Shown: positions 1 through 40,489 of the stretch, one piece after another
Layout of the letters: each line of letters starts with the position of its first letter
Position numbering within the stretch: the first letter of the stretch is position 1
Assembly: GCF_000004195.4 (NCBI RefSeq)
Contig: NC_030681.2
Coordinates: 138,263,506 to 138,327,505, forward strand
Length of the DNA: 64,000 nt
Origin: Xenopus tropicalis
Taxonomy: Eukaryota; Chordata; Amphibia; Anura; Pipidae
Reading direction: 5' to 3'
The notes under the pieces: generated by a model
The model's input: the letters and a program-made list of their open reading frames with translations, nothing else
Told to the model about the DNA's origin: nothing
The model's database searches: none
Program-made: the position numbers and the translations under genes

Positions 1-3000
1 AATCTGAGGCTACAACAACTTTTCCCTTTTCCAAGGCTTTTGGTACAGTAGTCAATTATGTGAGCTTTGTTTGGAAAGTTACCTGATTTGTTTACATAAG
101 AACATGTCAATAAGGGGGAAATAAAAAAAAAATCCTTATAGAAAATTAGGTTCCAAATAGAAATAGGGCTACCCTGGCCTCTCAACCTGCCTTTGCAATA
201 TATAACATCAGTCCCATGAACCTGAAGGGATAATTGATAGTGCTTGAATTTCACAAATTCCCTGCTAATTTAGCCATAGTCACGTCCTACAAACACGTTA
301 TCACTGCTCACAGAGGTCACTGTGTAGATGACAACATGGAAGTATTAAGTATAGGTAAGGTAAGCTTTGCTAGAACCATCAGAGATATCCAATATAGAGA
401 CAGATTCAAATGAATTAGAAAACTTTATCGCCCGGTACAATTTCAAAATTCCCCCATAGCTTTCTATTAAGATTTCATGAGATAAACAATGAGAATTTTT
501 GGATATTATCTGGGCAATACTTTGAAAAGAATTTTAGGGTACACTTGTAGAAACATAGCTAAAATGCTTGGTCTACATATATAGAAACCTAAAATTACTG
601 ATTTAAGGGGCCATCAAACCACAATGTATCTGTCTTCCTGGGGGGTTCTATCACCTCACCCAAATTTGGTCAAACATTTTAACATCTTTGTACAACTAAT
701 ATTGAATAATTACAACTTACCAAAATGGATTAACCTTACACAGCTGGTAAGCTTTAATACTCTATGCCAGGGATTTCCATTGTGGTGAATTGTGATTCTG
801 CACCAACCCGCATCAGTTGGGGATCCAGCCAAAAGCCAGTTAGCTTGTGATATGGAGAATGCCTAGTTGTTCATAGAGGGGCCAAGAAGCACCCAAGGCA
901 AGGATGGCTATCTTCACCTCCACCCCCATAGTCCCACCACCTCATTACTGATAGGAAGGTTTGGTGCTGGACACAGACTAGGTTATACTGAAAGAGTGAA
1001 AACAGACAAGGAGATGAGCTGCACACAGAGCTGCTGTGTGTGTATTGAAACAAACTTGTTTGCACCCCCTTAAAAAAAAAAAAAAACTGCACCCTAGGCA
1101 GGTGCCTCTGCTGCCTACCCAAGTTCTGAACCTGGGTGTTTTCTTTAATATTGCAGTTAGCTAAGAGATGATTTGTGCACATTATTCAGATATCCTTCAC
1201 TATTGTAACCATGGCGGACCTGTTAGTTAGCTTGAATAAAAAATGGTTTTTGGAAATAGCTCTTAGCAGGGCAGATTTCTGATTGGGGCGCACCTTTGGC
1301 CGCCCACCAACCTCGACCAAGAATGCACCCCCCCCCCCGCGCGCATGCGCGTCACTTTACTTTAGATGGAGCATTGGGGAGAGGACCTGCTAAAGTTTCT
1401 GTGCGTCCTCTGCCCATTGCTCGGTATACAGGCAAAATTTCATGCGTGGCAGGGTGGCATGCCAGCCCTAAATTTCTGCCGCCCTAGGCCTAGGCCTTTG
1501 TAGCCTCGCCACAAATCCGGGCCTGGCTCTTAGTACAAGTTGATCCAGGGACTGGTTGGGAGTAAATTGCCATCTTGAAGACAGGAAGGAATTCTTTACC
1601 TCTCTTAGGCAAATTAGAGAGGCTTTCACCTTCCTCTGGATTAACTAGCAGTTAGGCAGGTTTATATAGACAAAAAGGGTGAACTCAGTGGGTGTGTATA
1701 GTGCATACCCACTTAATAAAACAGCAGTTCATGGTGTAAAAAAAAAAAACCAAGAACTGTAATAAACTGTTTCTCTTATAAGGCAGATGCGGGGTGCAAA
1801 TTTCCTTACAGTCAGTTGTGCTAAAAATCCCATTGATTAAAGTTACTTGCATCAATATATACTACTTATACTTCCATATAGATGCTCTCGGCACTACTGC
1901 CTCCTGTTCTAAATTGCGCCGCTGTGGGAACTCTGTAGCTACCGCCAACCTCTAAAGCAATCGCAGCAGCGCAGTGGCGCCATAAGATTCAGTTGCACAC
2001 GTGACTCGTTGGAGCACATCTTGTAAATAATGCCAACTAGAAAATGTTCATCGCAATAGTGTCTGATTTTCTCCATTTCTCCAATTGCATCAATTTTGAC
2101 ACATCAGTGACATTTAGGGTTGCCACCTTTTTCCTGGCCTTTTACCAGTCGATAATGTGAGGCGGGACTGAATGCTATGGGGGCTATACCACGAAGAGGG
2201 CGGAGCTCTGACACGAGGGGGGGGCAAAGCTTTTAAAGAATCGATAAAAATGGAGGGAGCTGCAGGGTGGAAGTGGTAATGGGCTGGATGGAGGGAGAGT
2301 GGGGGACATTATGGAGGCAGAGTGCCAGCTGAATTGGGGAGGCTGGAGGCAGAACATTAGGGATTACAGCATGCTTTAACCATCACTATAAATGGCAAAT
2401 ATTACATTATCTATATATATTACAGCACATTAAATAATAAATAGGTACAATCTCATTTCATAGTACATTAAATGTCATAAATGTTTAAGAATAATTGAAT
2501 TTAGTTCCATAACATCATTCCATGAGGTACTCAGAGAGACAAATAATAGCCCCCGGGCCTTGGGTTGCTACCAGATGAAGAAGCATTTGACTCTATAAAG
2601 AATAGTATATCCTGCTCATTAGGAGCCACTTGTAGCTTCAGAGCCTCAGACATCACCACAGACCCGGCAATTCTACTATTTCCCTGTCTGTACAAAAAGA
2701 CTTCTGTTATGTAGCTAATAAATGACTGGGTATTACACCATATATATTATATATTAATACATGTATTGGAAATATTAACTGTACCACTGCTTGGTTGCAC
2801 AATAATGCACAATAACACTCATTTTGCCTCTTTGCCAGAACTGTGGTTAATGCAACTTGGTGTCTGACCACAAAGGCACATGCATTCTGGGAAAAACATG
2901 ATTCATTGTGAGAAATACATGATTTGTATCTAAAAACTGCACTTTTCATGTCTACAGGGAACGTTTGATACAATTAAGTTAGTACTAATTCACTTGCCTC

Positions 3001-4527
3001 AACTCAGGGGTGTATTTTGGTCTGGTGCCACCTAGAGGGCATATTTTTTCAATAACAAAGGGCAATGCTGCCTTTGTGCGGTAATCCCTAGTGACCAATC
3101 AGTAATTAGAGTTGCTCAGTTTATAGAAGAAGAATAAAGAACACAGAACTTTTATTGGAATACTGCACTGCACAGGTTCCTGGTGTTATCTGAAGGCTTT
3201 TATACCAGGTACCAATGATATATCTAATACCTGGCAGAGAAAAAGGATGCAGGCATAAAAACAAACAGACTAATTAAGGAATCAGTGGACATTCAGGGAC
3301 TTTCAGGTCCATTATGGGTTCTTTATCAGGCCCCTCTGCTTATGAGGTGACTTTACAATTTATCACTGGCACTAACACTGACCATGCCTGCCTGGCAAGG
3401 AGCTTATCCACCTCTCCTCATCCATCTCTGTTCTCCCAGATCAGTGGCCTTCAAACATGAACCACTGCCTGCTCAGCTGGGGATCCCTGCACTCACTTAC
3501 CCCATTGTGGCTGTTCTTGAGGGTCTTGCTCCTCTTCTGCTCCTTTCTTTTACCCCTCTTATTAGTTCCCCACTGGTATAAATTGCATGGCTACAGAAGC
3601 TGGTAAAGTACAATTCAAATGCTCCATGAAGCTCATCAATGGAAGGATTTTGGGACCCAAATGATAGTTCTCCAAAGCAGATTGTTACTTTCTATTTGCA
3701 GAAATCAGTCTTTTGGAGTGTGACAGTGCTATCAGTCGTGATATTTTGGGGCTCGAACCCTTAAGTCTAGGAAATGTTTCTGACAGAACCAAACAGTAGC
3801 AGAGAGACTCATATTGGGCCACACAACACTATTTAATAGACCATGAAGCTGCGGCTCTAATTGGAAATGTTAGAATCCGGCACAGGTAGAATTTGTTTCT
3901 GGACAGGATTCAATATTGTGACAGACAGCAGACCTGCTGCTCTCGCTTTGATTTGTTTGCTAAGTTTAAGTGGATAAATGTGTCAATTACAGTGACGGAA
4001 TTAAAGGAGCCCTCCTGAGAGGCCGTAGCCATACCAACCTTATTAATTACACCTAAGAACTGAGCTTATGTGACATGTTCAGCCGACTGTATGATTGATA
4101 CTCTCATTACTTTCCGCCTGCAGAAGCCAATGGGTTCCTTCTCATGAGTTTATTGGATACAAAATATTGGACTTACTGAGAAGGCAGACAGATTTTTGGC
4201 AAAAGTCTTCAGGTAGGGTTGGTTTTAGGGCAGGGCAATGAGGCCATTTAACCTGGACTCCCATCTGGGGTACAGAAGGTGTCACTGTAAGGAGTCCCAC
4301 CATTGCCAGGACCATAAAAAATCAATATTTTGTTCTGTTCAGTATAGCATTGGGGAATGGGAGCTTATATTCCCCTTGGTCATAGAAGAAAAGTAGTTTT
4401 TGTGATTGGGCTTCTAGCTATTTAGCTTGGATTATCTAAGGGGTCTGTCTTGTGTATAAAAAGGGATGTGGCCTTTGAGCCCATTGACTGCAAATTGTCA
4501 TTAAATTAGGGTGGTGCAGGGTGCTTT
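1..4527. repeat. Tandem duplication, copy 1 (noncoding)
   Basis: This block recurs at 11172-15702 with no base substitution noticed on reading the two side by side. The differences I found are one-base changes in homopolymer runs: C5/C4 near 451, A15/A16 near 1072, T3/T4 near 1437, C2/C3 near 3031, T6/T7 near 3045 and T3/T4 near 3325. Identity starts at base 1, so the copy probably extends left of the window. It ends at 4527, where the next bases are retroelement leader. Inside is a GC-rich stretch with an 11-C run and a CCTAGGCCTAGGCC core (about 1265-1525) that looks like an interspersed repeat, and a GC-rich patch at 2120-2340. The short open frames here have no recognisable domain. I see no host exon. 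Confidence 0.93.
4455..4463 (+). promoter_or_regulatory. TATA-like box about 100 bp before the gag start
   Basis: TATAAAAAG lies 103 bases upstream of the retroelement ATG. It belongs to the duplicated flank, since the same bases occur near 15630, and not to the retroelement. With the 5' LTR absent it is a conceivable substitute promoter. No initiator or other element was identified, and TATA-like strings are common in AT-rich DNA. Confidence 0.2.
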
Positions 4528-4557
4528 GCATTGTAAAGTGTTTTGCTGCAGGGCATA

Positions 4558-7500
4558 ATGGACGACGTTATCAAGGCCTTGATACAGGCTACGGCTGCTC
4601 AGCAAGAGGCCACCAGAGTCCAGCAGCAACAGCTGATCGCATCCCGAGAGGAACAGCGACAAGACCGAGAGCTCCTCAAAGAGGTAGTGCAGCAGCTAGC
4701 TGCAAGGAGTGTCGCAGCACCTCCTACAGAAACCGCTAAACCAACTGCTATACGGGCTAGCTACTATCTGCAAAAGCTGACAACAAGTGATGATGTTGAA
4801 GCGTACCTTTCCACATTTGAGAGGATAGCAGAGCGAGAGGACTGGCCTAAAGAGCAGTGGGCAGGCCTGGTGGCGCCCTTTCTCTCTGGCGAACCACAAA
4901 AAGCCTATTTTGATCTGGATCACATTGCCGCTAAAGATTATGACAAACTAAAAGCTGAGATTTTGGCCCGGCTGGGGGTCACCCTCTCGGTCCGTGCCCA
5001 GCGTGTTCATCAGTGGATGTTTATGGCAGAAAAGCCTCCACGCTCTCAGATGCATGACCTAATTCATCTAACTAAAAAGTGGCTGCAGCCGGAGACCCTA
5101 ACAGGGCCACAGATCGTGGAGCGGATAGTGATGGACCGGTTCCTTAGGTCTCTGCCTTCACCTTTGCGCAAATGGGTAAGCCATGCAGACCCAACCACTG
5201 CAGACCAGCTTGTGGAAATGGTAGAGCGGTACATTTCTGCTGAGGAGCTACTCAGTTTTCAACAAGTGGAGCGCACCTTGGCTCCCAAGGGAAAACTTCA
5301 TGCATGGAAAAAGGAACCTGCGACTGATAAGAGCATGCTCCAACGTGGACAATCTACAGGCGCTAGGCCCAGAGACTACCAAAATGTGTCAGGAGGGACC
5401 CCTCCTCGCAGAGGACCAAATAAAGAATTGGTGCGGTGTTTCCGGTGCCATATGCTGGGACACTTTGCTGCAGACTGCAGCCTAACGGATGAACCTATGC
5501 AGTGTGATACTGCCTTAACAAAGAGACGTACGTCGATGTATGCTCAGATTGTGTGTACTGCCCTTCCAAAGACAGGGAATGATAAATACCTGTGTGATGT
5601 TATTGTGGAAGGAAAGCCAGTGAATGCATTATTAGATTCTGGTAGCCAGGTTACCCTGATGAAATCTGTGTTGGTTGAAACCCCTCAATTTGGGCCTGAT
5701 ACTGTAGGGGTTACATGTATACATGGGGATACTCGCGAGTATTCTATGGCTGAAGTGGAAATCAAAACTGCCTACGGGACATTAAGGTACCCTGTAGGGT
5801 TGGTTCCCACTTTACCACATGATGTAATTTTGGGGAGAAACTTCCCACATTTTTGGAAATTGTGGGAAACTGACAAGGTTATGGACCAGTCCTACTTAAA
5901 GGGAAGCCGCCCTGATTCCGGTAGTAAAGTGTCTGAGGTTGTACCGGAAGGTGGGGCTACTATAGATTTTCCCTTTTCTGTATTAGCAGGGGAATCTGAT
6001 GAGGTAGACATGGAACCCCAGGTTGACCAGACTATACCAGGTGGGGAAGTCCATGTAGACCCAGTTGAGGAAGACAATGACATGCCTGACTTGGAGATTA
6101 GGAGGGATAATTTTGCTTCAGAGCAGTTAAAGGATCCCACACTGTCTAGAGCAAGGGCCAATGTAAAAATGATAGATGGGAAACCTGTAGACTCTGACTC
6201 TAGACCCTCTTGTCCCTACTTAGCCCTCCAAAATGACCTGCTATATCAGGTAGTAGAAAAGGGAAATGACCGGGTGGAACAGCTGGTTGTCCCAAAACCA
6301 TACCGGCGTATGGTACTTGACCTCGCACATAAACATGTGATGGGCAGACATTTAGGGGTAGAGAAGACAAAGGAGCGAATTTTGCAACGGTTTTTCTGGC
6401 CAGGGCTACATGGTGAAGTTGAGCAATACTGTAGTTCCTGTCCAGACTGCCAGTATTCGGTTCCTAGGCCACATTTTCGTAGCCCTTTGGTCCCTCTCCC
6501 GGTGATAGAGACACCATTTGAGAGGATAGCCATGGATTTGGTGGGCCCAATAGTAAAATCTGCACGGGGACACCAACATATATTGGTAATCATGGATTAT
6601 GCTACCAGATACCCCGAGGCCATTCCTCTACGTAATACCTCCTCTAAATCCATTGCTAGAGAATTGGTACATGTCTTTAGCAGGGTAGGAATCCCAAAGG
6701 AGATACTCACTGACCAAGGCACCCCGTTTATGTCCCGGGTCATGAAGGAGCTGTGCAGGTTGTTTAAAGTGGTCCAACTTCGCACTTCTGTATACCACCC
6801 CCAGACTGATGGGTTAGTGGAAAGGTTTAATAAAACGCTCAAAAGTATGCTTAAGAAGGTGGTAGACAAGGATGGGAAAAATTGGGATTACTTGTTACCC
6901 TATTTAATGTTTGCCATAAGGGAGGTCCCTCAATCATCTACGGGGTACTCACCGTTTGAGTTGCTATATGGTAGGCACCCAAGGGGCTTGTTGGACATAG
7001 CAAAGGAGACTTGGGAGGGACAACCCACCCCCTTTAAAAGTGTCATTGAGCATATAGACCAAATGCAGGACAGAATAATCGCAGTGATGCCCATAGTAAG
7101 AGAGCACATGGAGCAGGCACAAGAAGCCCAACAGAGGGTGTATAATAGGGGTGCCAGAGTACGCAATTTTTCCCCTGGGGATCGTGTATTAGTGCTAATA
7201 CCCACCGTAGAAAGCAAATTTTTGGCAAAGTGGCAAGGGCCCTTTGAGATTCTTGAAAAGATTGGTGAAGTAAATTATAAGGTTCGCCAACCAGGTAAAA
7301 GGAAACCTGAGCAGGTTTACCACGTCAATCTTATAAAACCCTGGAAAGAAAGGATGTCATTGTTCACCAAGCCTACTTTATCTCTAAGGGCAGAACCCCT
7401 AGTGCCAGAGGTTAAGGTGGCAGACTCCTTGTCAGACACTCAGAGGAAAGAAGTACAGACCTTTGTAATCAAAAATAGGGATGTTTTTTCTGAGAAACCT

Positions 7501-8928
7501 GGACGAACCTCTTTGGTAAAGCATGACATCATAAATGAACCTGGGGTAAGGGTTAACATAAAACCTTATAGGGTGCCTGAAGCTAGACGAGAAGCCATAT
7601 CTCAGGAAGTTAAAAAGATGTTAGAGTTGGGAGTCATTGAGGAGTCACATAGCGATTGGTCCAGTCCCATTGTCTTAATACCAAAACCGGATGGGAGCTG
7701 GCGCTTCTGCAATGACTTTAGAAAATTAAATACTGTCTCCAAATTTGATGCCTACCCTATGCCTCGTGTGGACGAATTAATTGAGAGACTAGGGACGGCT
7801 AGATACCTGACAACCTTAGATTTGACCAAGGGCTATTGGCAGATTCCCCTGACGGACCGAGCCAAAGAGAAAACTGCTTTTAGCACTCCCGAAGGTCTGT
7901 TCCAGTATTTAGTGTTGCCATTTGGGTTACATGGAGCCCCAGCAACCTTCCAACGTACCATGGACCAAATCTTAAGGCCCCATAGGCAGTACGCAGCAGC
8001 GTACCTTGATGACGTAGTTATCCATAGCTCGGATTGGCAATCCCATCTACCCAGGGTACAGGCCGTGCTTGATTCCATACGAATGGCCGGTTTGACAGCT
8101 AACCCAAAAAAATGTAGCATAGGCCTGGAAGAAGCCAAGTATTTGGGGTACAACATTGGTAGAGGGCTAGTTAAGCCTCAGCTTAACAAGGTGCAGGCAA
8201 TTCAAGACTGGCCTAGACCAGTCACAAAAAAACAGGTTAGAGCTTTTTTGGGGATCACTGGTTACTACAGAAGGTTCATAGCTAACTTTGCCACTATAGC
8301 TGTCCCTCTGACTGACCTTACAAAAGGGACCAAGTCCATAATGATCAAGTGGAACTCTGAGGCAGAACAGGCCTTTCAGACCCTAAAAAAAGCCTTATGC
8401 AGCCAACCAGTACTGATAACCCCAAACTTTACACAGAAATTTATTGTGCAGACTGACGCATCCGATGTGGGAGTCGGAGCAGTACTGTCCCAAATCAGAG
8501 AGGGTGCAGAGCATCCTATAGTTTTCCTGAGTAAAAAGCTGAACATCCATGAGAGAAACTATGCTACAGTAGAGAAGGAATGCTTAGCAGTGAAATGGGC
8601 GCTGGAGGAGCTTAGATACTATCTGTTAGGCCGCCAGTTTACATTAGTTACTGACCACGCTCCCCTTAAATGGATGTGTGAAAATCGTGAAAAGAATAGA
8701 AGGGTGACAAGATGGTTCCTGGCCCTTCAGAACTACAAGTTCACAGTGGAGCATAGACCGGGGTCCCAGCTGGGGAATGCAGATGCCTTATCCCGGGTAC
8801 ACTGTCTTGAGGCTAGTTGTGTTCCGACCCCTACGTCGAAACAGAGGGGGAGGGTGTGTGAGAGAAATGCTGGATTAGAGGTGGAAGGTGTTTATATTTC
8901 TCCCAGATTTCTCTCTTATATATACTAA
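4558..8928 (+). CDS. Gag-Pol polyprotein, Gmr1-type (Ty3/gypsy)
   Basis: The frame is 1456 codons from the first ATG (4558); the open frame upstream lacks another ATG. Seen in order (numbering from that Met): coiled-coil-like N-terminus, a capsid part resembling the SCAN domain (about 165-233), a zinc knuckle CX2CX4HX4C (294-307), a protease with DSG (D360), and an integrase with an H593/H598/C628/C631 zinc site and a DDE core D660, D719, E755 (exact DX35E). A GPF-type module follows near 890, then reverse transcriptase (D1088 in a TLDLTKGYW motif; YLDD at 1149-1152), then RNase H (D1300, E1339 or E1341, D1366). All catalytic residues I looked for are present and there is no internal stop. 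The family makes virus-like particles, copies its RNA to cDNA and integrates it. The last 24 or so codons lie inside the 3' LTR. Expression is uncertain without a 5' LTR. Confidence 0.92.
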   Translation: MDDVIKALIQATAAQQEATRVQQQQLIASREEQRQDRELLKEVVQQLAARSVAAPPTETAKPTAIRASYYLQKLTTSDDVEAYLSTFERIAEREDWPKEQWAGLVAPFLSGEPQKAYFDLDHIAAKDYDKLKAEILARLGVTLSVRAQRVHQWMFMAEKPPRSQMHDLIHLTKKWLQPETLTGPQIVERIVMDRFLRSLPSPLRKWVSHADPTTADQLVEMVERYISAEELLSFQQVERTLAPKGKLHAWKKEPATDKSMLQRGQSTGARPRDYQNVSGGTPPRRGPNKELVRCFRCHMLGHFAADCSLTDEPMQCDTALTKRRTSMYAQIVCTALPKTGNDKYLCDVIVEGKPVNALLDSGSQVTLMKSVLVETPQFGPDTVGVTCIHGDTREYSMAEVEIKTAYGTLRYPVGLVPTLPHDVILGRNFPHFWKLWETDKVMDQSYLKGSRPDSGSKVSEVVPEGGATIDFPFSVLAGESDEVDMEPQVDQTIPGGEVHVDPVEEDNDMPDLEIRRDNFASEQLKDPTLSRARANVKMIDGKPVDSDSRPSCPYLALQNDLLYQVVEKGNDRVEQLVVPKPYRRMVLDLAHKHVMGRHLGVEKTKERILQRFFWPGLHGEVEQYCSSCPDCQYSVPRPHFRSPLVPLPVIETPFERIAMDLVGPIVKSARGHQHILVIMDYATRYPEAIPLRNTSSKSIARELVHVFSRVGIPKEILTDQGTPFMSRVMKELCRLFKVVQLRTSVYHPQTDGLVERFNKTLKSMLKKVVDKDGKNWDYLLPYLMFAIREVPQSSTGYSPFELLYGRHPRGLLDIAKETWEGQPTPFKSVIEHIDQMQDRIIAVMPIVREHMEQAQEAQQRVYNRGARVRNFSPGDRVLVLIPTVESKFLAKWQGPFEILEKIGEVNYKVRQPGKRKPEQVYHVNLIKPWKERMSLFTKPTLSLRAEPLVPEVKVADSLSDTQRKEVQTFVIKNRDVFSEKPGRTSLVKHDIINEPGVRVNIKPYRVPEARREAISQEVKKMLELGVIEESHSDWSSPIVLIPKPDGSWRFCNDFRKLNTVSKFDAYPMPRVDELIERLGTARYLTTLDLTKGYWQIPLTDRAKEKTAFSTPEGLFQYLVLPFGLHGAPATFQRTMDQILRPHRQYAAAYLDDVVIHSSDWQSHLPRVQAVLDSIRMAGLTANPKKCSIGLEEAKYLGYNIGRGLVKPQLNKVQAIQDWPRPVTKKQVRAFLGITGYYRRFIANFATIAVPLTDLTKGTKSIMIKWNSEAEQAFQTLKKALCSQPVLITPNFTQKFIVQTDASDVGVGAVLSQIREGAEHPIVFLSKKLNIHERNYATVEKECLAVKWALEELRYYLLGRQFTLVTDHAPLKWMCENREKNRRVTRWFLALQNYKFTVEHRPGSQLGNADALSRVHCLEASCVPTPTSKQRGRVCERNAGLEVEGVYISPRFLSYIY
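8841..8854 (+). promoter_or_regulatory. Polypurine tract before the 3' LTR
   Basis: A 14-base run, ACAGAGGGGGAGGG, all purine except one C, sits directly before the TGTGTG that starts the LTR. This is where plus-strand primers form in LTR retroelements. It lies within the 3' end of the coding frame. Confidence 0.7.
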
Positions 8929-9481
8929 GCTCCAGGGAAAGTATGTCAGCAGTGAAAGAGTGTTCTTTCACTGCATTAGGCTTCTGGAAAAGCCGGTAAA
9001 AAGGGCCCTGGAGTGAATGGAAGTGAGCGGGTGGGACTTCCATTCAACAGGCTAACCAGGTTTTGGTGAAGCCTGGCTAATTAGTGGCCTTGTTAGGCTT
9101 CAGGGGAAACCCCTTTAAACATGGTGTGTGCAGAGTGACTCACTCTCTCCTTTCCTGGGGAACTGCCTGCATGCAGTATGGAGAGAGCCGGACACAGTGA
9201 GTAACCAAACTACTTTTGTTTTTGTAGAGTTGGATGCTAGATCCTCTCTATTGCATAGAGAGGGAGTTGCTGTATGTTAGTTAGAGCCGGATAGGCTAGG
9301 ATTTATTTTTATGTTTTGTTTTCCAAAATACTCCTGTGTGCCGGTTATTTGTGAATAAAGCTGATTGAGGTCAGCTTAAAACTAAATGCTGGGTGTGAAC
9401 TGTTGTTTTCTGAGACCAATCTGATCCCTGCAATCTACCTAAACCCCCAGAGACTGCACTGTTTGGACGAGTTGCCTTACA
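8855..9481 (+). repeat. 3' LTR of the Gmr1-type element
   Basis: It starts TGTGTGAGAG after the polypurine tract and ends in TTACA, giving the usual TG...CA boundaries and a length of about 627 bases. It contains a poly(A) signal at 9354-9359 and the last 24 or so codons of gag-pol. I found no second copy in the window. The ends are inferred from the motifs alone, because no 5' LTR is available for comparison. Confidence 0.75.
9354..9359 (+). promoter_or_regulatory. AATAAA polyadenylation signal in the 3' LTR
   Basis: AATAAA follows a T-rich stretch, 122 bases before the LTR end. This is the expected place for the R-region poly(A) signal. Confidence 0.55.
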
Positions 9482-11171
9482 GTATGTATATCTTTATTTA
9501 TAAAGCGCTACTTATGTACGCAGCGCTGTACAGTAGAATACATTAATACAGACAGGGGGTTAAAGATAATGGATAAATACAAAGTACAACAATATCTATC
9601 CATCTATCTATCAGTCTATCTATCAGTCTATCTATCTATCAATCATCTATCTATCTATCTATCTATCATCTATCTATCTATCATCTATCTAAAATAATCC
9701 ATTTGTTCTTTTATCTGTGTTTTAACCCCCCTTGCCTTGCTCCGCAGCAGTTAGTAGAGTTATGTCAGGCAATCATACATCCCACTTTGTATGCCTCCTA
9801 ACACATATCGGTTTGTACATTAATATTATGTAATTCATATCTCAACAGGCAAAAACAGGTGCAAGAATTTGCTCAGACTACTTATATTTTGTTTCCCAAT
9901 ACTGTAGTGTTTTCTCAAAGTTTGAGTCCATAAATGTTAGATGGGCATATTATCCCCCAGCCTGCCAAAAAAATCATTGATTTCTCAAATTATTTCTTTA
10001 TAAAGAAGTTATCCTAAAGGTAGGAAGGGAACAGAATGAGCAAAGCAGGAACCATGCCAGACCTTGCTAATAACATATAGCAATTAGCATAGTAGCAATG
10101 AGCTCATGGAAGCAATCTGTGTTCTGTCTGGCACAGAACTCTCTCCTGGGGACTTGCTCCCATTAGTAATATAAAGGACTGGCAATGAAACCAGAATAGC
10201 AGCCAACCCACATTACGAGTCCCACAGGAACCGTACTGCAGCACGCGCTGTCTGGTCCTACGTGTAATGCAAACTAAGAAAATTGTGAACAAAAATAGTC
10301 ATCACACATGGGCTCCTATGTTACCATCTGGCCTGATCAGTCTGAGTCCAATCTGGCCATCTACATGGATGGTCATACAGTATTTATCCATTTGTCTGGC
10401 CATTGCTCCAAATCAAGGGATGTGAACAAAGTGATAGAGAGCTGGGGCCTCCTTCACTTCCGATACCTGCTGGTGCTCTAACTACATACTAAGATTGGCC
10501 AGTGTGGGACATCTACTGACTGGAGAGACCAACTGGGATCTAATGAGCTAACAATGAGATGATATAGAATTTTGTGCCACATGTTCAATGTGTTATTGAG
10601 CCAAACAAATATCAACAAGAGGAGCTAAAGCCAAATGAGTAAAGAATGCTCCAGTCAATGTCTGTCTGAATATGGGCACCTGTGGTTTGGTGTTGTGGGT
10701 GTCCCATAGCTTAAGAATAAATAAATTAAAAGACCAGTCTCTTTCTGCAGAAAACAATAATAACCTCCAGGTTGAATTTATCTGAGCCATATTACACTAT
10801 TCAGGCAGCTTCAGGCATGAAGCATCCATTCCCAAGCTGACTGGAGATCAAGAGGCAACAAGAGACCTGAAAACAAGAGGAAAGTCCCCTAAGAAATGAT
10901 CATTATGATACAGCGGATGTCTGTGCAGGACTAGATGATGGAGAAGGTGATTATTAACTGCGCTGGTCTCTACTCAAGGCTCTTGTCAGAAACATTCTTT
11001 GTTTGACATCCCCTACTTTAAAGCTTCTGGCACCCAACATTTTATATCTGTCCTCCCATCATCTGACATGATACTGAGCCGTCATCCAATATATTTGGTC
11101 CCTTGCGATATATGTCAGTTTTGAAAAGGTTCAGCAGGTCTGCAAAGCTTGAAAATTGTGCTCAGAGCAGA
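9482..11171. other. Retroelement downstream flank, no gene seen
   Basis: The first 100 bases after the LTR contain a palindromic AGCGCT...AGCGCT segment (9502-9530) that looks like part of a dispersed frog repeat, followed by a tetranucleotide array. The rest (9700-11171) has only short open frames without recognisable domains. If the tandem-duplication model is right, this DNA originally lay immediately upstream of the segment at 11172. Confidence 0.6.
9594..9690 (+). repeat. (TCTA)n microsatellite
   Basis: About 97 bases of imperfect TCTA/ATCT repeats, interrupted by CAGT and CATC variants. Confidence 0.95.
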
Positions 11172-14100
11172 AATCTGAGGCTACAACAACTTTTCCCTTT
11201 TCCAAGGCTTTTGGTACAGTAGTCAATTATGTGAGCTTTGTTTGGAAAGTTACCTGATTTGTTTACATAAGAACATGTCAATAAGGGGGAAATAAAAAAA
11301 AAATCCTTATAGAAAATTAGGTTCCAAATAGAAATAGGGCTACCCTGGCCTCTCAACCTGCCTTTGCAATATATAACATCAGTCCCATGAACCTGAAGGG
11401 ATAATTGATAGTGCTTGAATTTCACAAATTCCCTGCTAATTTAGCCATAGTCACGTCCTACAAACACGTTATCACTGCTCACAGAGGTCACTGTGTAGAT
11501 GACAACATGGAAGTATTAAGTATAGGTAAGGTAAGCTTTGCTAGAACCATCAGAGATATCCAATATAGAGACAGATTCAAATGAATTAGAAAACTTTATC
11601 GCCCGGTACAATTTCAAAATTCCCCATAGCTTTCTATTAAGATTTCATGAGATAAACAATGAGAATTTTTGGATATTATCTGGGCAATACTTTGAAAAGA
11701 ATTTTAGGGTACACTTGTAGAAACATAGCTAAAATGCTTGGTCTACATATATAGAAACCTAAAATTACTGATTTAAGGGGCCATCAAACCACAATGTATC
11801 TGTCTTCCTGGGGGGTTCTATCACCTCACCCAAATTTGGTCAAACATTTTAACATCTTTGTACAACTAATATTGAATAATTACAACTTACCAAAATGGAT
11901 TAACCTTACACAGCTGGTAAGCTTTAATACTCTATGCCAGGGATTTCCATTGTGGTGAATTGTGATTCTGCACCAACCCGCATCAGTTGGGGATCCAGCC
12001 AAAAGCCAGTTAGCTTGTGATATGGAGAATGCCTAGTTGTTCATAGAGGGGCCAAGAAGCACCCAAGGCAAGGATGGCTATCTTCACCTCCACCCCCATA
12101 GTCCCACCACCTCATTACTGATAGGAAGGTTTGGTGCTGGACACAGACTAGGTTATACTGAAAGAGTGAAAACAGACAAGGAGATGAGCTGCACACAGAG
12201 CTGCTGTGTGTGTATTGAAACAAACTTGTTTGCACCCCCTTAAAAAAAAAAAAAAAACTGCACCCTAGGCAGGTGCCTCTGCTGCCTACCCAAGTTCTGA
12301 ACCTGGGTGTTTTCTTTAATATTGCAGTTAGCTAAGAGATGATTTGTGCACATTATTCAGATATCCTTCACTATTGTAACCATGGCGGACCTGTTAGTTA
12401 GCTTGAATAAAAAATGGTTTTTGGAAATAGCTCTTAGCAGGGCAGATTTCTGATTGGGGCGCACCTTTGGCCGCCCACCAACCTCGACCAAGAATGCACC
12501 CCCCCCCCCGCGCGCATGCGCGTCACTTTACTTTAGATGGAGCATTGGGGAGAGGACCTGCTAAAGTTTCTGTGCGTCCTCTGCCCATTGCTCGGTATAC
12601 AGGCAAAATTTTCATGCGTGGCAGGGTGGCATGCCAGCCCTAAATTTCTGCCGCCCTAGGCCTAGGCCTTTGTAGCCTCGCCACAAATCCGGGCCTGGCT
12701 CTTAGTACAAGTTGATCCAGGGACTGGTTGGGAGTAAATTGCCATCTTGAAGACAGGAAGGAATTCTTTACCTCTCTTAGGCAAATTAGAGAGGCTTTCA
12801 CCTTCCTCTGGATTAACTAGCAGTTAGGCAGGTTTATATAGACAAAAAGGGTGAACTCAGTGGGTGTGTATAGTGCATACCCACTTAATAAAACAGCAGT
12901 TCATGGTGTAAAAAAAAAAAACCAAGAACTGTAATAAACTGTTTCTCTTATAAGGCAGATGCGGGGTGCAAATTTCCTTACAGTCAGTTGTGCTAAAAAT
13001 CCCATTGATTAAAGTTACTTGCATCAATATATACTACTTATACTTCCATATAGATGCTCTCGGCACTACTGCCTCCTGTTCTAAATTGCGCCGCTGTGGG
13101 AACTCTGTAGCTACCGCCAACCTCTAAAGCAATCGCAGCAGCGCAGTGGCGCCATAAGATTCAGTTGCACACGTGACTCGTTGGAGCACATCTTGTAAAT
13201 AATGCCAACTAGAAAATGTTCATCGCAATAGTGTCTGATTTTCTCCATTTCTCCAATTGCATCAATTTTGACACATCAGTGACATTTAGGGTTGCCACCT
13301 TTTTCCTGGCCTTTTACCAGTCGATAATGTGAGGCGGGACTGAATGCTATGGGGGCTATACCACGAAGAGGGCGGAGCTCTGACACGAGGGGGGGGCAAA
13401 GCTTTTAAAGAATCGATAAAAATGGAGGGAGCTGCAGGGTGGAAGTGGTAATGGGCTGGATGGAGGGAGAGTGGGGGACATTATGGAGGCAGAGTGCCAG
13501 CTGAATTGGGGAGGCTGGAGGCAGAACATTAGGGATTACAGCATGCTTTAACCATCACTATAAATGGCAAATATTACATTATCTATATATATTACAGCAC
13601 ATTAAATAATAAATAGGTACAATCTCATTTCATAGTACATTAAATGTCATAAATGTTTAAGAATAATTGAATTTAGTTCCATAACATCATTCCATGAGGT
13701 ACTCAGAGAGACAAATAATAGCCCCCGGGCCTTGGGTTGCTACCAGATGAAGAAGCATTTGACTCTATAAAGAATAGTATATCCTGCTCATTAGGAGCCA
13801 CTTGTAGCTTCAGAGCCTCAGACATCACCACAGACCCGGCAATTCTACTATTTCCCTGTCTGTACAAAAAGACTTCTGTTATGTAGCTAATAAATGACTG
13901 GGTATTACACCATATATATTATATATTAATACATGTATTGGAAATATTAACTGTACCACTGCTTGGTTGCACAATAATGCACAATAACACTCATTTTGCC
14001 TCTTTGCCAGAACTGTGGTTAATGCAACTTGGTGTCTGACCACAAAGGCACATGCATTCTGGGAAAAACATGATTCATTGTGAGAAATACATGATTTGTA

Positions 14101-15702
14101 TCTAAAAACTGCACTTTTCATGTCTACAGGGAACGTTTGATACAATTAAGTTAGTACTAATTCACTTGCCTCAACTCAGGGGTGTATTTTGGTCTGGTGC
14201 CACCCTAGAGGGCATATTTTTTTCAATAACAAAGGGCAATGCTGCCTTTGTGCGGTAATCCCTAGTGACCAATCAGTAATTAGAGTTGCTCAGTTTATAG
14301 AAGAAGAATAAAGAACACAGAACTTTTATTGGAATACTGCACTGCACAGGTTCCTGGTGTTATCTGAAGGCTTTTATACCAGGTACCAATGATATATCTA
14401 ATACCTGGCAGAGAAAAAGGATGCAGGCATAAAAACAAACAGACTAATTAAGGAATCAGTGGACATTCAGGGACTTTCAGGTCCATTATGGGTTCTTTTA
14501 TCAGGCCCCTCTGCTTATGAGGTGACTTTACAATTTATCACTGGCACTAACACTGACCATGCCTGCCTGGCAAGGAGCTTATCCACCTCTCCTCATCCAT
14601 CTCTGTTCTCCCAGATCAGTGGCCTTCAAACATGAACCACTGCCTGCTCAGCTGGGGATCCCTGCACTCACTTACCCCATTGTGGCTGTTCTTGAGGGTC
14701 TTGCTCCTCTTCTGCTCCTTTCTTTTACCCCTCTTATTAGTTCCCCACTGGTATAAATTGCATGGCTACAGAAGCTGGTAAAGTACAATTCAAATGCTCC
14801 ATGAAGCTCATCAATGGAAGGATTTTGGGACCCAAATGATAGTTCTCCAAAGCAGATTGTTACTTTCTATTTGCAGAAATCAGTCTTTTGGAGTGTGACA
14901 GTGCTATCAGTCGTGATATTTTGGGGCTCGAACCCTTAAGTCTAGGAAATGTTTCTGACAGAACCAAACAGTAGCAGAGAGACTCATATTGGGCCACACA
15001 ACACTATTTAATAGACCATGAAGCTGCGGCTCTAATTGGAAATGTTAGAATCCGGCACAGGTAGAATTTGTTTCTGGACAGGATTCAATATTGTGACAGA
15101 CAGCAGACCTGCTGCTCTCGCTTTGATTTGTTTGCTAAGTTTAAGTGGATAAATGTGTCAATTACAGTGACGGAATTAAAGGAGCCCTCCTGAGAGGCCG
15201 TAGCCATACCAACCTTATTAATTACACCTAAGAACTGAGCTTATGTGACATGTTCAGCCGACTGTATGATTGATACTCTCATTACTTTCCGCCTGCAGAA
15301 GCCAATGGGTTCCTTCTCATGAGTTTATTGGATACAAAATATTGGACTTACTGAGAAGGCAGACAGATTTTTGGCAAAAGTCTTCAGGTAGGGTTGGTTT
15401 TAGGGCAGGGCAATGAGGCCATTTAACCTGGACTCCCATCTGGGGTACAGAAGGTGTCACTGTAAGGAGTCCCACCATTGCCAGGACCATAAAAAATCAA
15501 TATTTTGTTCTGTTCAGTATAGCATTGGGGAATGGGAGCTTATATTCCCCTTGGTCATAGAAGAAAAGTAGTTTTTGTGATTGGGCTTCTAGCTATTTAG
15601 CTTGGATTATCTAAGGGGTCTGTCTTGTGTATAAAAAGGGATGTGGCCTTTGAGCCCATTGACTGCAAATTGTCATTAAATTAGGGTGGTGCAGGGTGCT
15701 TT
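11172..15702. repeat. Tandem duplication, copy 2 (noncoding)
   Basis: Near-identical to 1-4527; the coordinate offset drifts from 11171 to 11175 through single-base homopolymer changes. The copies part after GTGCTTT: copy 1 continues into retroelement leader at 4528, copy 2 into unrelated DNA at 15703. It carries the same GC-rich patches as copy 1 and no recognisable exon. Confidence 0.93.
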
Positions 15703-17206
15703 TGTGAGTTAGCGGGTGCCATCAGGGCAGGATGCTGCTGTGCCATGTACTCTGGGCCTGCGGTATGGCACGTGGTACATACAAGGCTGTGTTGTCTTTA
15801 CTGCTGTGTCTGGATCTTACAAATATTATGTCAGCGCCCCTAGAATTTGAGCCTTAAGAATGACTGTGCAGGTTTTACTTATGGGGTGGGCACCTTGGGT
15901 TCCTTGCAGGTAGCAACTGGCCAAATAAAAGGCAGCTTTGCATCAGGATCCATCAGGGTAACTTTAGCCTAGAAATACACAAAAATGAAGAAGGTGGGCG
16001 CACTCCAAGGCTTAGTAAAATATGCAAGTACAATGGAAGTGCAACTAATCTGGCCAAATTAGCTGAGAATATAAAAGAGAGACGAAGGATTAAAGGAGAA
16101 GGAAAGTCATTTTGCCATTTTACAGCCAATAGATTAGCCATATTAGAGCCACCTAGAACATTATATTTATTCTGCAGAAAGCTTTAACCATAGCTTAGAT
16201 CACACATTCTGATGGGAGTGGAGTGAATACTTATGGGAGGGGAGAGCAGGAGAAGGGAGAGAGGAGAGAGCTGTGCAGACTCGGGCCCCGGGAATGAATG
16301 AGAGGAAGTCAGATACCCAAAGAACATGTTTACAAAAAAGGAGACAAGAAATCCTGTGTTTCTTTTGATAGAGGACTCTATGGCTATGTGCCTGTGGCTG
16401 TATTTCCAAAGCAGCCAATAAAATATTTGCGTTTAAACTGGTGACCAGTAAATGCTGCCTCCTGATTGGTTGCTGTGGGTTACTGCTCCTGGGCAAACTT
16501 TGTGCCTTTTATTACATATGGATGTTATTATCGGAAGTGCATGTATTTTCGTTATGCTTATGAAACTGACAAGCCACCATACCACGTCAAGGTAAAACCC
16601 ACATGGTGGCCCTAACTATTTACCTCCAGTCGTATTTTTCATAGGTTGGCACCTCCCTAAATGGTTGCATTTCTTGGCATAAGTGACTCCTAGCCTATCT
16701 TCTTACCTCAATATAATGATAAGTAATGATGTAATGATGTGTCATTTTTTTCTGAAATAACTGTTTTTTAAAAGGCTTTTATCTTTAGACATTACTTTCA
16801 GAATCTCAGTTTTTGAAATCGCCTGGAAATGTCACAACCGCCGCTGTATGGGGGCCTCAGAAAAAGGCAGATATTCGGCGGGCGATGGCGTTATCTAATG
16901 AGGTTTCCATTTTCTGCTGTAGCGGTGAGTCACAGCAGTTGGCTTGCAAGTTATCAGATCTGCGCGTCCATCTGCTCGATACGAAGGCTACATATTGCTG
17001 CAAAGCTGGTGTGAAGTGCTCAGCTAACGTGAATATTAGATTTTGCCTTCATGCAGAAAATGAATGACACCAAACTACCAAATAAGTCTTTCTTGTGCAG
17101 CGTAGAGGGCAATAATGGGGCTTATCGGCCTTATATCTTTCTCTATTGATCTAAACAACGTTGAATTGTGATCTCAGAGACTGTATAATGTAGGGAAGAA
17201 GCAGGG
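15703..17206. other. Unique DNA after the duplication, no gene seen
   Basis: No convincing exon on either strand. A segment at 16440-16510 (TTGGTTGCTGTGGGTTACTG with CTCCTGGGC) matches one end of the inverted-repeat element at 50075-50203, so it is probably a fragment of that family. The remainder is AT-rich sequence without recognised structure. Confidence 0.5.
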
Positions 17207-17756: not shown

Positions 17757-18518
17757 CCACTCCTAATACTATTATATGTAAAGCATCCTATTTAGTGCAC
17801 ACAATGCATCCTCGCTCAGGAGGAAGCCGGAAGTGGCGAAACGCGTCAGCGGTGAGAGAGAGGAGGAGCACTGTACAGGGCAGGACTGCTGAACCCAGGA
17901 ACGACACTGCAGGTCGTGAACAGGGAAAGAAAAAGAGCAGCCGCCTGATCCATACCAGTGACTCCTGCGCATCCTATACTCTGTTTTAAATTCACAGAAG
18001 GGGAAGGGAAACGGAAAGGTCGTGGAATTAACCTAAAATTGCTAAAGTTGGAAATTTACCTATGTGAAGTGGTTCCTAACACTGCCTGAAATTAAGAGGT
18101 GGAAAGCAGAAAGTCGGGAGCTACAAGCGAACCAATCGGATGCCATATAAACCCAAGGGGGTCTGTAAGTAGATTGGCAATCGGAAAGGGATATCACAAC
18201 TGGGCACAAAAGGTGATATAAGTGATATAAGTAAAAGTCATCAGTGGTGTTAAAAAGCACATGAGAGTGCACATTGTGAAGTAATAACAGTATTACGCTA
18301 TATATATTTTTTTTTTCTTCTTTTTCTTTTCCTCATAAGACCTCATCGCTAAGTATAAAGCAGAAGAGGGCACTTTGGAGTAATTTATTGAACAATGCTG
18401 TGAATGGCAGACCTCAGCACTAAAAGGGAGCAACTTGACACCTGTTTCCAGTCCCTGGGCATCAGTTGGGTGCCTTACTGTATTTAAACTGGTGACAAAG
18501 GAACAAAGGAACTCCCAC
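17757..18518. other. Noncoding, with a GAAACGCGT-type repeat motif
   Basis: At 17815-17850 the sequence CTCAGGAGGAAGCC...GGCGAAACGCGTCAG resembles an abundant amphibian interspersed motif, and a related form in the other orientation is at 60180-60215. A T/C-rich run is at 18305-18325. No gene is visible. Confidence 0.45.
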
Positions 18519-19310
18519 ATTGATGATCCCTCGCAACCCTGGCCCTCACGTTTTCTATGTCTAACCTCCTCTTTTGAGCTCCAGCAGTGGACTAATGTTC
18601 CGACTCATAAGGATGGCCACTTTCTGGACTTAGTCTTTACCAAAAATCTGTCCCTTTCTGATTTTAACAGTGTCCCCTTTCCCTTCTCTGACCATCACCT
18701 CGTTACATTTTCTGTCTCTCACTCTCCTTCCCAACCTGCTCCTTCCCCCGCTGTATTAATTAGAAACACACGTGACGTAGATCTCCCGGCCTTAGCTCGC
18801 TCTTTCAGGTCCAGTCTCTCCTCCTTTAATGAGTTGTCTGACCCTGATACCCTGCTTTGCGAGTACAACAGAATACTATCCTCCACCATTGATTCATTTG
18901 CACCCCTTCAGCCTAAGCGCACTCGGGTGCAAAACCCCCGCCCCTGGCTGAATGTGCAGACCAAATTCCTACGCTCCTGTGCGAGGTCTGCGGAACGTAT
19001 GTGGAGGAAATCCCGTACGCAAGCAGACTTTATCCACTATAAATTCCTATTAGCCTGCCTCAATTCTGCCCTGTCGAAGGCTAAACAGGAATACTACAAC
19101 ACCCTCATAAACAGTAATAAATCCAACCCAAAACGCCTATTTTCCATATTCAATACCCTTCTGCATCCCTCGCAGACTCCATCACCTGACTTTATGCACT
19201 CTCCCCAGGACTTTGCTGATTTCTTCCTGAACAAAGTGGAGTCCATCCGCAACCAAATCCCCCCTCTAATAATACTAACCAGCTCCTCCTTCCTCAGCCC
19301 CCCTCTGCAT
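18519..19310 (+). pseudogene. LINE endonuclease C-terminus and linker (fragment)
   Basis: The frame shows PTHKDGHFLDLVFT and then SDHHLVTF (about 18686). The second is the final conserved SDH motif of apurinic-type endonucleases of LINEs. A basic linker with NPRPWLN and a row of arginines follows, usual ahead of the reverse transcriptase in L2/CR1-type proteins. The frame runs on to a stop near 19334, but the homologous reading changes phase between about 19285 and 19310, probably in the C-run near 19300. There is no plausible start; the open frame upstream of 18519 is not LINE-like. Confidence 0.8.
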
Positions 19311-20453
19311 GTCTTAGCTCATTTGGTCCCGTAACTGGCTCTGAAGTCTCCCGACTTCTTTTGTCCGCTCCCCTCACCACTTGCTCTTTAGACCCTATGC
19401 CTTCTTCTCTTCTCAAACACTGTGCTGCTGAGCTTACTCCGGCTCTTACTCACATCTTCAACTCTTCTCTGTCTTCTGGAAGTTTCCCCTCTTCTTTCAA
19501 ACAGGCCTGTGTCAAGCCCATCCTTAAAAAGGCCACGCTGGACCCGTCCTGTCTCTCTAACTACCGTCCTGTCTCGCTCCTACTGCTTGCCTCCAAAATC
19601 TTAGAGTGCATTGTCTTCTCCCGTATAACTAACTTCCTTAATGCACATAATTTACTGGACCCGCTGCAATCTGGCTTTCGGCCTGCGCACTCTACTGAGA
19701 CAGCGTTGTGCAGAGTTATGAATGATCTTCAGGTTGCCAAAGCCAGTGGTCACTTTTCTGTACTAATCCTCCTAGATCTATCGGCTGCGTTTGATACAGT
19801 TGACCACTCCCTCCTAATGCAAATTATGCATTCGATTGGTCTCCGTAGTCAGGCTGCATCCTGGATCTCTTCCTACCTCTCTAACCGTTCATTCACTGTC
19901 TCCTATGCTAACAAAATCTCATCTCCAGTTCCTCTTAATGTGGGGGTACCCCAAGGCTCTGTACTTGGGCCGTTGTTGTTCTCCCTTTACACGCTGTCTT
20001 TGGGAGATCTTATCCGTTCATTTGGCTTCAAATACCATCTGTATGCTGATGATATCCAAATTTACTTTTCGACCCCTTCATTAACAGTTGAAACTGAGAC
20101 TCAAATCTCTAACTGCCTCCTGGCTATCTCCAATTGGATGAACCAACGCCACCTCAAACTGAACCTAACAAAAACCGAACTAATGATCTTTCCGCCTAAG
20201 CCTGGTCCTACTCCCCCCTTTTCTATCTCTATTGAAGGCACCCTCATCAACCCTGTCAATTCCATGCGTTGTTTGGGGGTGATCTTTGACTCCAGTCTCT
20301 CCTTCTCTGACCATACTAACACCACTGTCAAAACCTGTCACTTTTTCTTACGCAATATTGCCAAAATCCGGCCCTTTCTTTCTACTGTAACAGCTAGGCT
20401 GCTCATGCACGCGCTCATCCTATCCCGACTTGACTACTGTAACCTGCTCTCTA
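19300..20453 (+). pseudogene. LINE reverse transcriptase (fragment)
   Basis: This continues the linker in another frame and gives a reverse transcriptase with [22 protein letters not shown], a [11 protein letters not shown] motif (first catalytic Asp), [13 protein letters not shown] and the catalytic YADD at 20042-20053. After the thumb-like RLDYCNLL the sequence becomes unrelated and stops at 20545, so the C-terminal part of the protein and the element's 3' tail are missing. The retained motifs are intact, but the frameshift and both truncations make it nonfunctional as it stands. Confidence 0.85.
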
Positions 20454-21533
20454 AGTCTGGGGGGCCACATCTCCCCATGTGCTATTGTCTCGCTGTGGGG
20501 AGAACTCAGTACCCAAGTTGTGGGGGGAGAGGGCGTTGGAATTGAGCCTGAGCCAAGGTGTCACATGTAGGTGGGGTTGGCCAATGGGGGTGATTGGGGG
20601 AAAGGCATGCCTTGGGCACCCTCATGTGTAATCCCAGCACTGATTTGCAATGGTGGAATCCTTTACTTGCAGCATTGGCTTGGGGTTTGATGTGCCATCA
20701 CTGCACAAGTTTTAACTTTTAATAACCAATGAACAGTTAAGAAAGAGGGTCCAAATTACTTTGATTAATTTGGTTTGAAGCAGATATTGTAAACAATCCC
20801 CTTAGTCTCTGTGTTTATAAAAGTGAGTAATTGTCTCTTTTTCCACCCAATAACCCATATTTATGCAATTATTTTACACTACATTAGACATTGGACAAAC
20901 TATTCTAGTTAATGGACTAGAGCAGGAGCAGCTAGCTCCCACTTCTGCTCGTACTAAACACAAGGAGAATGTAAAAAATATGTAGGGCTTAATTTATTAT
21001 TAGTGGGTACAGAAATGGGCACAAAATTGGGGAGGGAACATATCTTGCCATTTGCACATTGTCTCCTTCGTAATGATAACAAAGTAAGGGCTGCAGGATG
21101 GATTTTCCCCTAATGTGCATATGAATGAATATAATATATTTCCAACACTTTCTCCCTTCACACATATTTCTGTAATTTTACAGCTCATTATGTAAAGCAC
21201 CCTGTTCTTGGCTGAATATGAATTCCCATGAAATCTAATCTTAGCCCTGTAACCAAGATACAGTAAAATATATATATACCTACTATACAGCAGTATTTTG
21301 GCCATCTACTTACTGATATATACCATATACTTATTTAGCCAATCATGTGCTTCTGTTGGCTTCCTGGGTAAAAGCTTGGGTCCCAATACAGGGCTAAGAA
21401 GGAGCACTGGGTGAGGGCTACATCAATGGGTCCTTTGTAACTAGAACTAAGTCAGGCCCATGTATGATAATTGCCATCCCTGAGGGTCAATTACTAAAAC
21501 AAACACAATTGTTGTGCATATTAGCACTATTCA
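20454..21533. other. Noncoding DNA, nothing recognised
   Basis: Starts at the abrupt end of LINE similarity. The first 250 bases are G-rich; the remainder is AT-rich with only short frames. No tail or target duplication for the LINE was found. Confidence 0.4.
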
Positions 21534-36484: not shown

Positions 36485-37364
36485 TACAGTTTTAGGACCT
36501 GTTATCCAGAATGCTCGAGACCTGGGGTTTTCCAGATAAGGGATCTTTCCGTAATTTGGATCTCCATTACTTAAGTCTGCTAAAAATCATTTAACTACTG
36601 AATAAACCCAATAGGACTGTTTTGCCCCCAATAAGGGGTAATTATATCTTAGTTGGGATCAAGTACAGGTACTGTTTTATTATTACAGAGAAAAGGGAAT
36701 CATTTAACCATGAAATAAACCCAATAGGGCTGTTCTGCCCCCAATAAGGGGTAATTATATCTTAGTTGGGATCAAGTACAGGTACTGTTTTATTATTACA
36801 GAGAAAAGGGAATCATTTAACCATGAAATAAACCCAATAGGGCTGTTCTGCCCCCAATAAGGGGTAATTATATCTTAGTTGGGATCAAGTACAGGTACTG
36901 TTTTATTATTACAGAGAAAAGGGAATCATTTAACCATGAAATAAACCCAATAGGGCTGTTCTGCCCCCAATAAGGGGTAATTATATCTTAGTTGGGATCA
37001 AGTACAGGTACTGTTTTATTATTACAGAGAAAAGGGAATCATTTAACCATGAAATAAACCCAATAGGGCTGTTCTGCCCCCAATAAGGGGTAATTATATC
37101 TTAGTTGGGATCAAGTACAGGTACTGTTTTATTATTACAGAGAAAAGGGAATCATTTAACCATGAAATAAACCCAATAGGACTGTTCTGCCCCAATAAGG
37201 GGTAATTATATCTTAGTTGGGATCAAGTACAGGTACTGTTTTATCATTACAGAGAAAAGGGAATCATTTTTAAAAATTAGAATTATTTGCTATGGGAGAT
37301 GGCCTTTCCATAATTCTGAACTTTCTGGATAAGGGGTTTCCGGATAAGGGATCCCATACCTGTA
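36485..37364 (-). mobile_element. MITE with about 6 tandem 113-bp units, inverted
   Basis: Complement of the family: starts TACAGTTTTAGGACCTG and ends GATCCCATACCTGTA, with six GGATCAAGTACAGGTACTG cores at 113-base spacing (36656 to 37221). A TA at each outer edge is compatible with a TA target site, but this is weak evidence. Confidence 0.92.
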
Positions 37365-40410: not shown

Positions 40411-40489
40411 AACTGCACTGGTTTCTGAGCTGCTATGTAATGATAATCTGAATTACTAATCTGCCTTATATTATGACATGTATAATCTA

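What the first reader, a model, noticed from the sequence alone, without database searches (positions are those of the whole stretch)
4528..15702. An 11.17-kb tandem duplication whose junction replaces a retroelement's 5' LTR
Bases 1-4527 and 11172-15702 are the same DNA. Copy 1 ends exactly where the 5'-less Gmr1 element begins, 30 bases before its ATG. A unit running from 4528 to 15702 and duplicated head to tail explains the repeat, the missing 5' LTR and the unrelated continuation at 15703 with one event. It predicts that DNA left of the window repeats 4528-11171 and contains the intact element with its 5' LTR.
Basis: partly seen in the sequence, partly recalled or inferred. Interest (0 to 1): 0.75.

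Follow-up and report, generated by a model that had tools for sequence, protein, structure and literature searches.

The report
Young tandem duplication carrying a retrotransposon
An 11.2-kb piece of frog chromosome appears twice head to tail, and the second copy starts inside a retrotransposon; this is an ordinary kind of duplication, unless it is an error of the genome assembly, which the sequence alone cannot rule out.

Summary
Window 1-4527 and 11172-15702 match with no substitution and six one-base indels. The window lies at G000:C5:138263506-138327505 of an assembly whose size and proteins fit Xenopus tropicalis v10 (inferred). The 10 kb to its left repeats 4524-11171, with no substitution and three one-base indels, and carries the element's 5' LTR. 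The assembly holds a head-to-tail duplication: copy 1 of 11,172 bp, copy 2 of 11,175 bp.

One detail was wrong. The junction 4527/4528 is not where the element begins. It lies 106 bp inside the 5' leader, so copy 2 lacks the 5' LTR and the first 106 bp of leader. The join has a 4-bp microhomology, CTTT. Over 11,178 columns there are 0 substitutions and 9 one-base homopolymer indels.

Still open is whether the duplication is in the frog or only in the assembly. The gap-free join and microhomology favour a real, very recent event; a unit of about one long read and error-like differences fit an unmerged contig overlap. I put real at about 0.57. Either way the kind is known.

The parts
1..4527 (+). 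right part of unit copy 1; the left part lies outside the window (C5:138256861-138263505, locus L020 3356-10000)
   Evidence: identical to 11172-15702 except six one-base homopolymer indels; continuation to the left matches 4528-11171
4527..4528 (.). duplication junction joining unit end (as at 15702) to unit start (inside the Gmr1 5' leader); 4-bp microhomology CTTT at 4524-4527
   Evidence: comparison of L020 3310-3400, window 4478-4570 and window 15653-15745; chance of 4 bp or more about 0.017
4528..15702 (+). unit copy 2, 11,175 bp
   Evidence: matches L020 3356-10000 plus window 1-4527 with 0 substitutions and 9 one-base indels
4528..9481 (+). 5'-truncated Gmr1-type LTR retrotransposon: leader remnant, gag-pol, 3' LTR; lacks the 5' LTR and the first 106 bp of leader, where a primer-binding site would lie
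   Evidence: comparison with the element in L020
4558..8928 (+). single open gag-pol frame, 1456 aa; order SCAN-type gag, protease, integrase, reverse transcriptase, RNase H; its last 72 bp lie inside the 3' LTR
   Evidence: open frame 4543-8928; Pfam; ATG at 4558 in frame; X. tropicalis protein P0241 of 1457 aa, 17 differences in 1456
8857..9481 (+). 3' LTR, 625 bp; AATAAA at 9354
   Evidence: aligns to 5' LTR at L020 2627-3249 with 2 substitutions and one 2-bp indel
9482..9485 (+). GTAT, likely 4-bp target site duplication; also present just before the 5' LTR in L020, but in GTAT-rich DNA, so weak
11172..15702 (+). right part of unit copy 2 (the repeat first seen)
15702..15703 (.). right end of the unit and start of the continuation that is not repeated at 4528

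Best explanation
An 11.17-kb unit was duplicated head to tail. It runs from 106 bp inside the 5' leader of a Gmr1-type Ty3/gypsy retrotransposon, through its gag-pol and 3' LTR, to 6.2 kb of flanking DNA. The unit's right end (15702) was joined to its left end inside the element through a 4-bp CTTT match, as in microhomology-mediated end joining or replication template switching. Copy 1 keeps the complete element with both LTRs. Copy 2 keeps gag-pol and the 3' LTR but lost the 5' LTR and the leader stretch where a primer-binding site would lie, so it should not make the normal genomic RNA. Shown: the layout in the assembly, the junction and the missing parts. Inferred: that the event happened in the frog's DNA, the repair route, the young age, and the loss of normal transcription.
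For: The left flank repeats 4524-11171 with 0 substitutions and carries the 5' LTR. A single junction explains the layout. CTTT microhomology at the join, chance about 0.017 (tested after seeing the join). No N in the 294 kb around it, so the join is not at a marked gap. No third full-length copy among the 43 listed matches. No other non-satellite repeat of this kind turned up in the 294-kb scan, though the place was picked because of this one and the scan had the limits told in the observation check. The element's LTRs differ by 2 substitutions in 623 bp while the two units differ by none, so the element is older than the duplication.
Against: All nine differences are one-base homopolymer indels and none is a substitution. 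Satellite comparisons in the window, used as controls, gave 72 substitutions to 8 gap openings over four pairs that share arrays (Fisher p 4e-8); a control less favourable to this point, the 113-bp array against itself, gave 44 to 18 (p 6e-5). So the differences look like consensus errors. In the two that could be polarised, copy 1 carries the deletion. Zero substitutions in 11.2 kb needs a very young event (divergence under 2.7e-4). The unit is about the length of one long read (read length recalled).
Confidence: 0.57

Rival explanations
1. Assembly artefact (homotype false duplication): one contig ended at the equivalent of 15702 and the next began at 4528; their overlap of about 11.2 kb, roughly one long read, was laid end to end instead of being merged. 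The frog has one copy.
For: 0 substitutions with 9 homopolymer indels is what two consensus calls of the same DNA would give. The X. tropicalis v10 paper describes PacBio CLR data, Canu and DBG2OLC assemblies merged with quickmerge (passages); that such a merge can leave joins without N is recalled. The line is inbred, with 11.7% of the genome still heterozygous (passages), so allelic copies would mostly be identical. Homotype false duplications are documented in other vertebrate assemblies (passages).
Against: The paper on false duplications names gaps between copies on one scaffold among their primary marks (passages); there is no N here. The 4-bp microhomology is expected by chance in about 1.7% of random joins, although the test was chosen after seeing the junction. 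A false duplication of two founder haplotypes is very unlikely: at 3.0 SNVs per kb about 33.5 would be expected and 0 are seen.
Confidence: 0.4
2. A cDNA lacking its 5' LTR was inserted with a 6.2-kb target duplication (9482-15702), without any duplicated element.
For: From the window alone it would explain the 4.5-kb repeat and the missing 5' LTR.
Against: It predicts that only 9482-11171 recurs left of the window. In fact 4524-9481 recurs too, preceded by a 5' LTR.
Confidence: 0.01
3. The 4.5-kb repeat is itself the giant LTR of the element.
For: A long direct repeat flanks a retroelement reading frame and one copy ends 30 bp before its ATG.
Against: The real LTRs are 623 and 625 bp, found at L020 2627-3249 and window 8857-9481.
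Confidence: 0

Closest known systems
Recent tandem (segmental) duplication with a microhomology junction
   Same: Two head-to-tail copies, one junction, 4-bp microhomology, near-perfect identity.
   Different: Nothing in kind. Only the place of the breakpoint, inside a retroelement leader, gives it its odd look.
Homotype false duplication in genome assemblies (PMC9516828, passages read)
   Same: Copies differ only by error-like indels; no haplotype SNVs.
   Different: No gap between the copies; read depth and linked reads not testable here.
Gmr1-like Ty3/gypsy LTR retrotransposons
   Same: Integrase lies before reverse transcriptase and gag has a SCAN-type domain; that this order marks the group is recalled. 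One gag-pol frame, as tabulated for four fish Gmr elements (PMC11117352, passages). About 200 Gmr1-like copies are reported from the Silurana (X. tropicalis) genome (PMC4131045, passages).
   Different: The window copy lacks the 5' LTR and the first 106 bp of leader.

Membership tests
Tandem duplication | two adjacent head-to-tail copies | tested here: met
   copy 1 C5:138256861-138268032, copy 2 C5:138268033-138279207
Tandem duplication | one junction joining unit end to unit start | tested here: met
   4527/4528 joins DNA seen in other contexts at 15702 and at L020 3356; in L020 the element runs unbroken from LTR through leader to gag
Tandem duplication | outer boundary at 15702/15703 ancestral | not tested
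   no orthologous locus of another species or assembly was available
Tandem duplication | double copy number in the organism's DNA | not testable with these tools
   no reads available
Homotype false duplication | no heterozygous variants between the copies | tested here: met
   0 substitutions in 11,178 columns; the k-mer test of the paper was not possible
Homotype false duplication | gap between the copies | tested here: not met
   no N in 294 kb around the unit
Homotype false duplication | low read depth or a read-depth gap at the join | not testable with these tools
   no reads available
Gmr1-like LTR retrotransposon | integrase upstream of reverse transcriptase | tested here: met
   rve 658-753 before RVT_1 1046-1205 in the 1461-aa frame
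Gmr1-like LTR retrotransposon | two LTRs | tested here: met
   met for the copy left of the window, 623 and 625 bp (the 3' LTR measured in copy 2); the window's own copy has only the 3' LTR
Gmr1-like LTR retrotransposon | clade placement by a reverse transcriptase tree | not tested
   no tree built; named close relatives are from X. tropicalis, X. laevis, other frogs, fishes and turtles
Gmr1-like LTR retrotransposon | tRNA-type primer-binding site after the 5' LTR | tested here: inconclusive
   TGG-starting stretch 2 bp after the LTR in L020; not matched to any tRNA

The most novel reading that the evidence does not exclude
The duplication is real, younger than some tens of thousands of years (rate assumed) and perhaps still polymorphic among X. 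tropicalis lines. By chance it has freed an intact SCAN-gag-pol frame from its own LTR promoter and placed it behind at least 4.5 kb of unrelated DNA: a snapshot of the first step by which a host could take over such a gene.
Probability: 0.06. Interest if true: 0.4.

Novelty: new member of a known kind. Interest (0 to 1): 0.18.

Why it matters
If real, it is a single-event example, with an upper bound on its age, of how a duplication breakpoint inside a retroelement makes an LTR-less copy with an intact gag-pol frame. If it is an artefact, it is a false 11-kb duplication in what appears to be the X. tropicalis reference genome, and should be flagged so that copy-number and transposon-age studies do not count it.

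Tried and rejected
Giant-LTR and one-LTR-insertion models were set up from the window alone and fell when the left flank could be read. My guess that the junction sits at a glycine-tRNA primer-binding site was wrong: the leader continues 106 bp further, and the script's search for words of 8 or more letters of that site in window 4401-4700 found nothing. Allelic (heterotype) false duplication was rejected on the SNV count. DNA relatives of the element: in viral contigs no match with the single sequence and none confirmed of 11 pattern matches with the alignment; in genome contigs 11 confirmed of 39 pattern matches, at 36-42% identity in prokaryote records, not followed up. Rfam: 0 matches at gathering threshold in the window. 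Pfam on 10 further open frames gave nothing at E 0.01; these were 10 of the 129 stop-to-stop frames of 70 aa or more listed, which already left out the element and the arrays. Paper searches for one-LTR insertions (0 papers) and large target duplications (1 paper, on L1; listing only) did not help. The planned genome-wide count of the LTR family did not complete. One control pair of five gave no alignment and is not in the 72:8 count; the four counted pairs overlap in the arrays they use and are not independent.

Full report
Check of the observation. The top row of the window's self-comparison is 1-4527 against 11172-15702: 4,532 columns, 0 mismatches, 6 gap openings; the other rows shown (150 of 268 were printed) fall in satellite arrays. 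All six gaps are single bases in homopolymer runs. The window's first base is inside the repeat, so the left boundary cannot be seen from the window.

Where it is. The whole-genome search answered. The window is G000:C5:138263506-138327505 in an assembly of 1,451,301,209 bases in 167 contigs. Proteins from the window match X. tropicalis records: one reverse transcriptase at 98% over 92% of the query, and a 909-aa piece of the gag-pol at 99% over its whole length. The published v10 assembly is described as 1448.4 Mb (PMC10794172, passages), close to but not equal to the size here. I infer X. tropicalis v10; the genome itself is unnamed.

The left flank. Ten kilobases to the left (L020) contain, at 3352-10000, window 4524-11171 with 0 mismatches and 3 gaps, and at 2627-3253 a match to the 3' LTR. 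Copy 1 of the unit is L020 3356-10000 plus window 1-4527, 11,172 bp; copy 2 is window 4528-15702, 11,175 bp. Together the two comparisons cover 11,178 columns with 0 substitutions and 9 one-base homopolymer indels; copy 1 is the shorter at 6 of the 9.

The element. The frame at 4558-8928 carries, in order, a SCAN-type gag domain, protease, integrase, reverse transcriptase and RNase H, the integrase-first order of Gmr1-like elements (recalled). An X. tropicalis protein of 1457 aa starts one residue earlier and differs at 17 of 1456 positions. The LTRs are L020 2627-3249 (623 bp) and window 8857-9481 (625 bp), with 2 substitutions and one 2-bp indel between them; GTAT lies on both outer sides, in GTAT-rich DNA. 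Four fish Gmr elements are tabulated with LTRs of 337-518 bp and one gag-pol frame of 1506-1634 aa (PMC11117352, passages).

The junction. The base matching window 4528 is L020 3356. Between the LTR end (3249) and that point lie 106 bp of leader, with a TGG stretch two bases after the LTR that could be a primer-binding site (no tRNA match made). So the second copy lacks the 5' LTR and those 106 bp; the join is inside the element and not at its boundary. The four bases before the join, CTTT, are shared by both parents of the join. With the window's base composition, a chance match of four or more has probability about 0.017.

Order of events. On the assembly, the element came first (LTR difference 2 in 623) and the duplication later (0 in 11,178). 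With an assumed rate of 3e-9 per site per year, these would be about 0.5 million years and under about 45,000 years. The rate is an assumption and the first figure rests on two substitutions.

Real or artefact. For an artefact: the differences are all of the homopolymer type, unlike satellite comparisons in the window, which show 72 substitutions to 8 gap openings over the four pairs that aligned of five tried (Fisher p 4e-8) and, in a control less favourable to this point, 44 to 18 (p 6e-5). In the two indels that could be polarised, copy 1 has the deletion: six of six dispersed-repeat copies show no gap against copy 2 at one site (two of them with the run broken by substitutions), and the 5' LTR agrees with copy 2 at the other. 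The published assembly used noisy long reads and a merge of two assemblies (passages). These points are not decisive, because short-read polishing also fails in true duplications, where reads map to both copies (inference). For a real event: there is no N in 294 kb, the join shows microhomology, and no third full-length copy is among the 43 matches listed. Two founder haplotypes assembled as paralogues are very unlikely, since about 33.5 SNVs would be expected. I give 0.57 to a real duplication and 0.40 to an unmerged overlap.

Verdict. The finding is correct as an observation and its explanation is confirmed at the level of the assembly, with the junction moved 106 bp inside the element. Tandem duplications of this kind are well known (established knowledge). 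The only lasting interest is its youth, if real, or the assembly error, if not.

Noticed in passing
window 33129-35576, 36585-37269, 45645-46389, 50721-51174; also L036 and L022: Four arrays of one 113-bp satellite unit in both orientations within 18 kb, with further related stretches up to about 100 kb away.
   Followed up: no
window 40474-42268: 56 copies of a 32-bp unit with about 95% matches and 0% indels.
   Followed up: no
L039, C5:138228608-138233505, to the end of the stretch: A tandem array with a period of about 41 bp over at least 4.9 kb, starting 28 kb left of the duplicated unit.
   Followed up: no
L020 2474-2574 and window 9482-9579: DNA near the element's two outer ends forms an inverted repeat (92% identical), so the element may have inserted near the centre of a palindromic repeat rich in GTAT.
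   Followed up: partly
window 18435-20545: Two neighbouring open frames; the second has a reverse transcriptase domain and is 98% identical to an X. tropicalis protein, the first has no Pfam match.
   Followed up: partly
window 4990-5260: The gag part matches solved SCAN domains of proteins named PEG3, ZNF24 and ZNF174 among 5 matches (best E 1e-10).
   Followed up: partly
window 8857-8928: The gag-pol frame runs 72 bp into the 3' LTR up to and including its stop.
   Followed up: no
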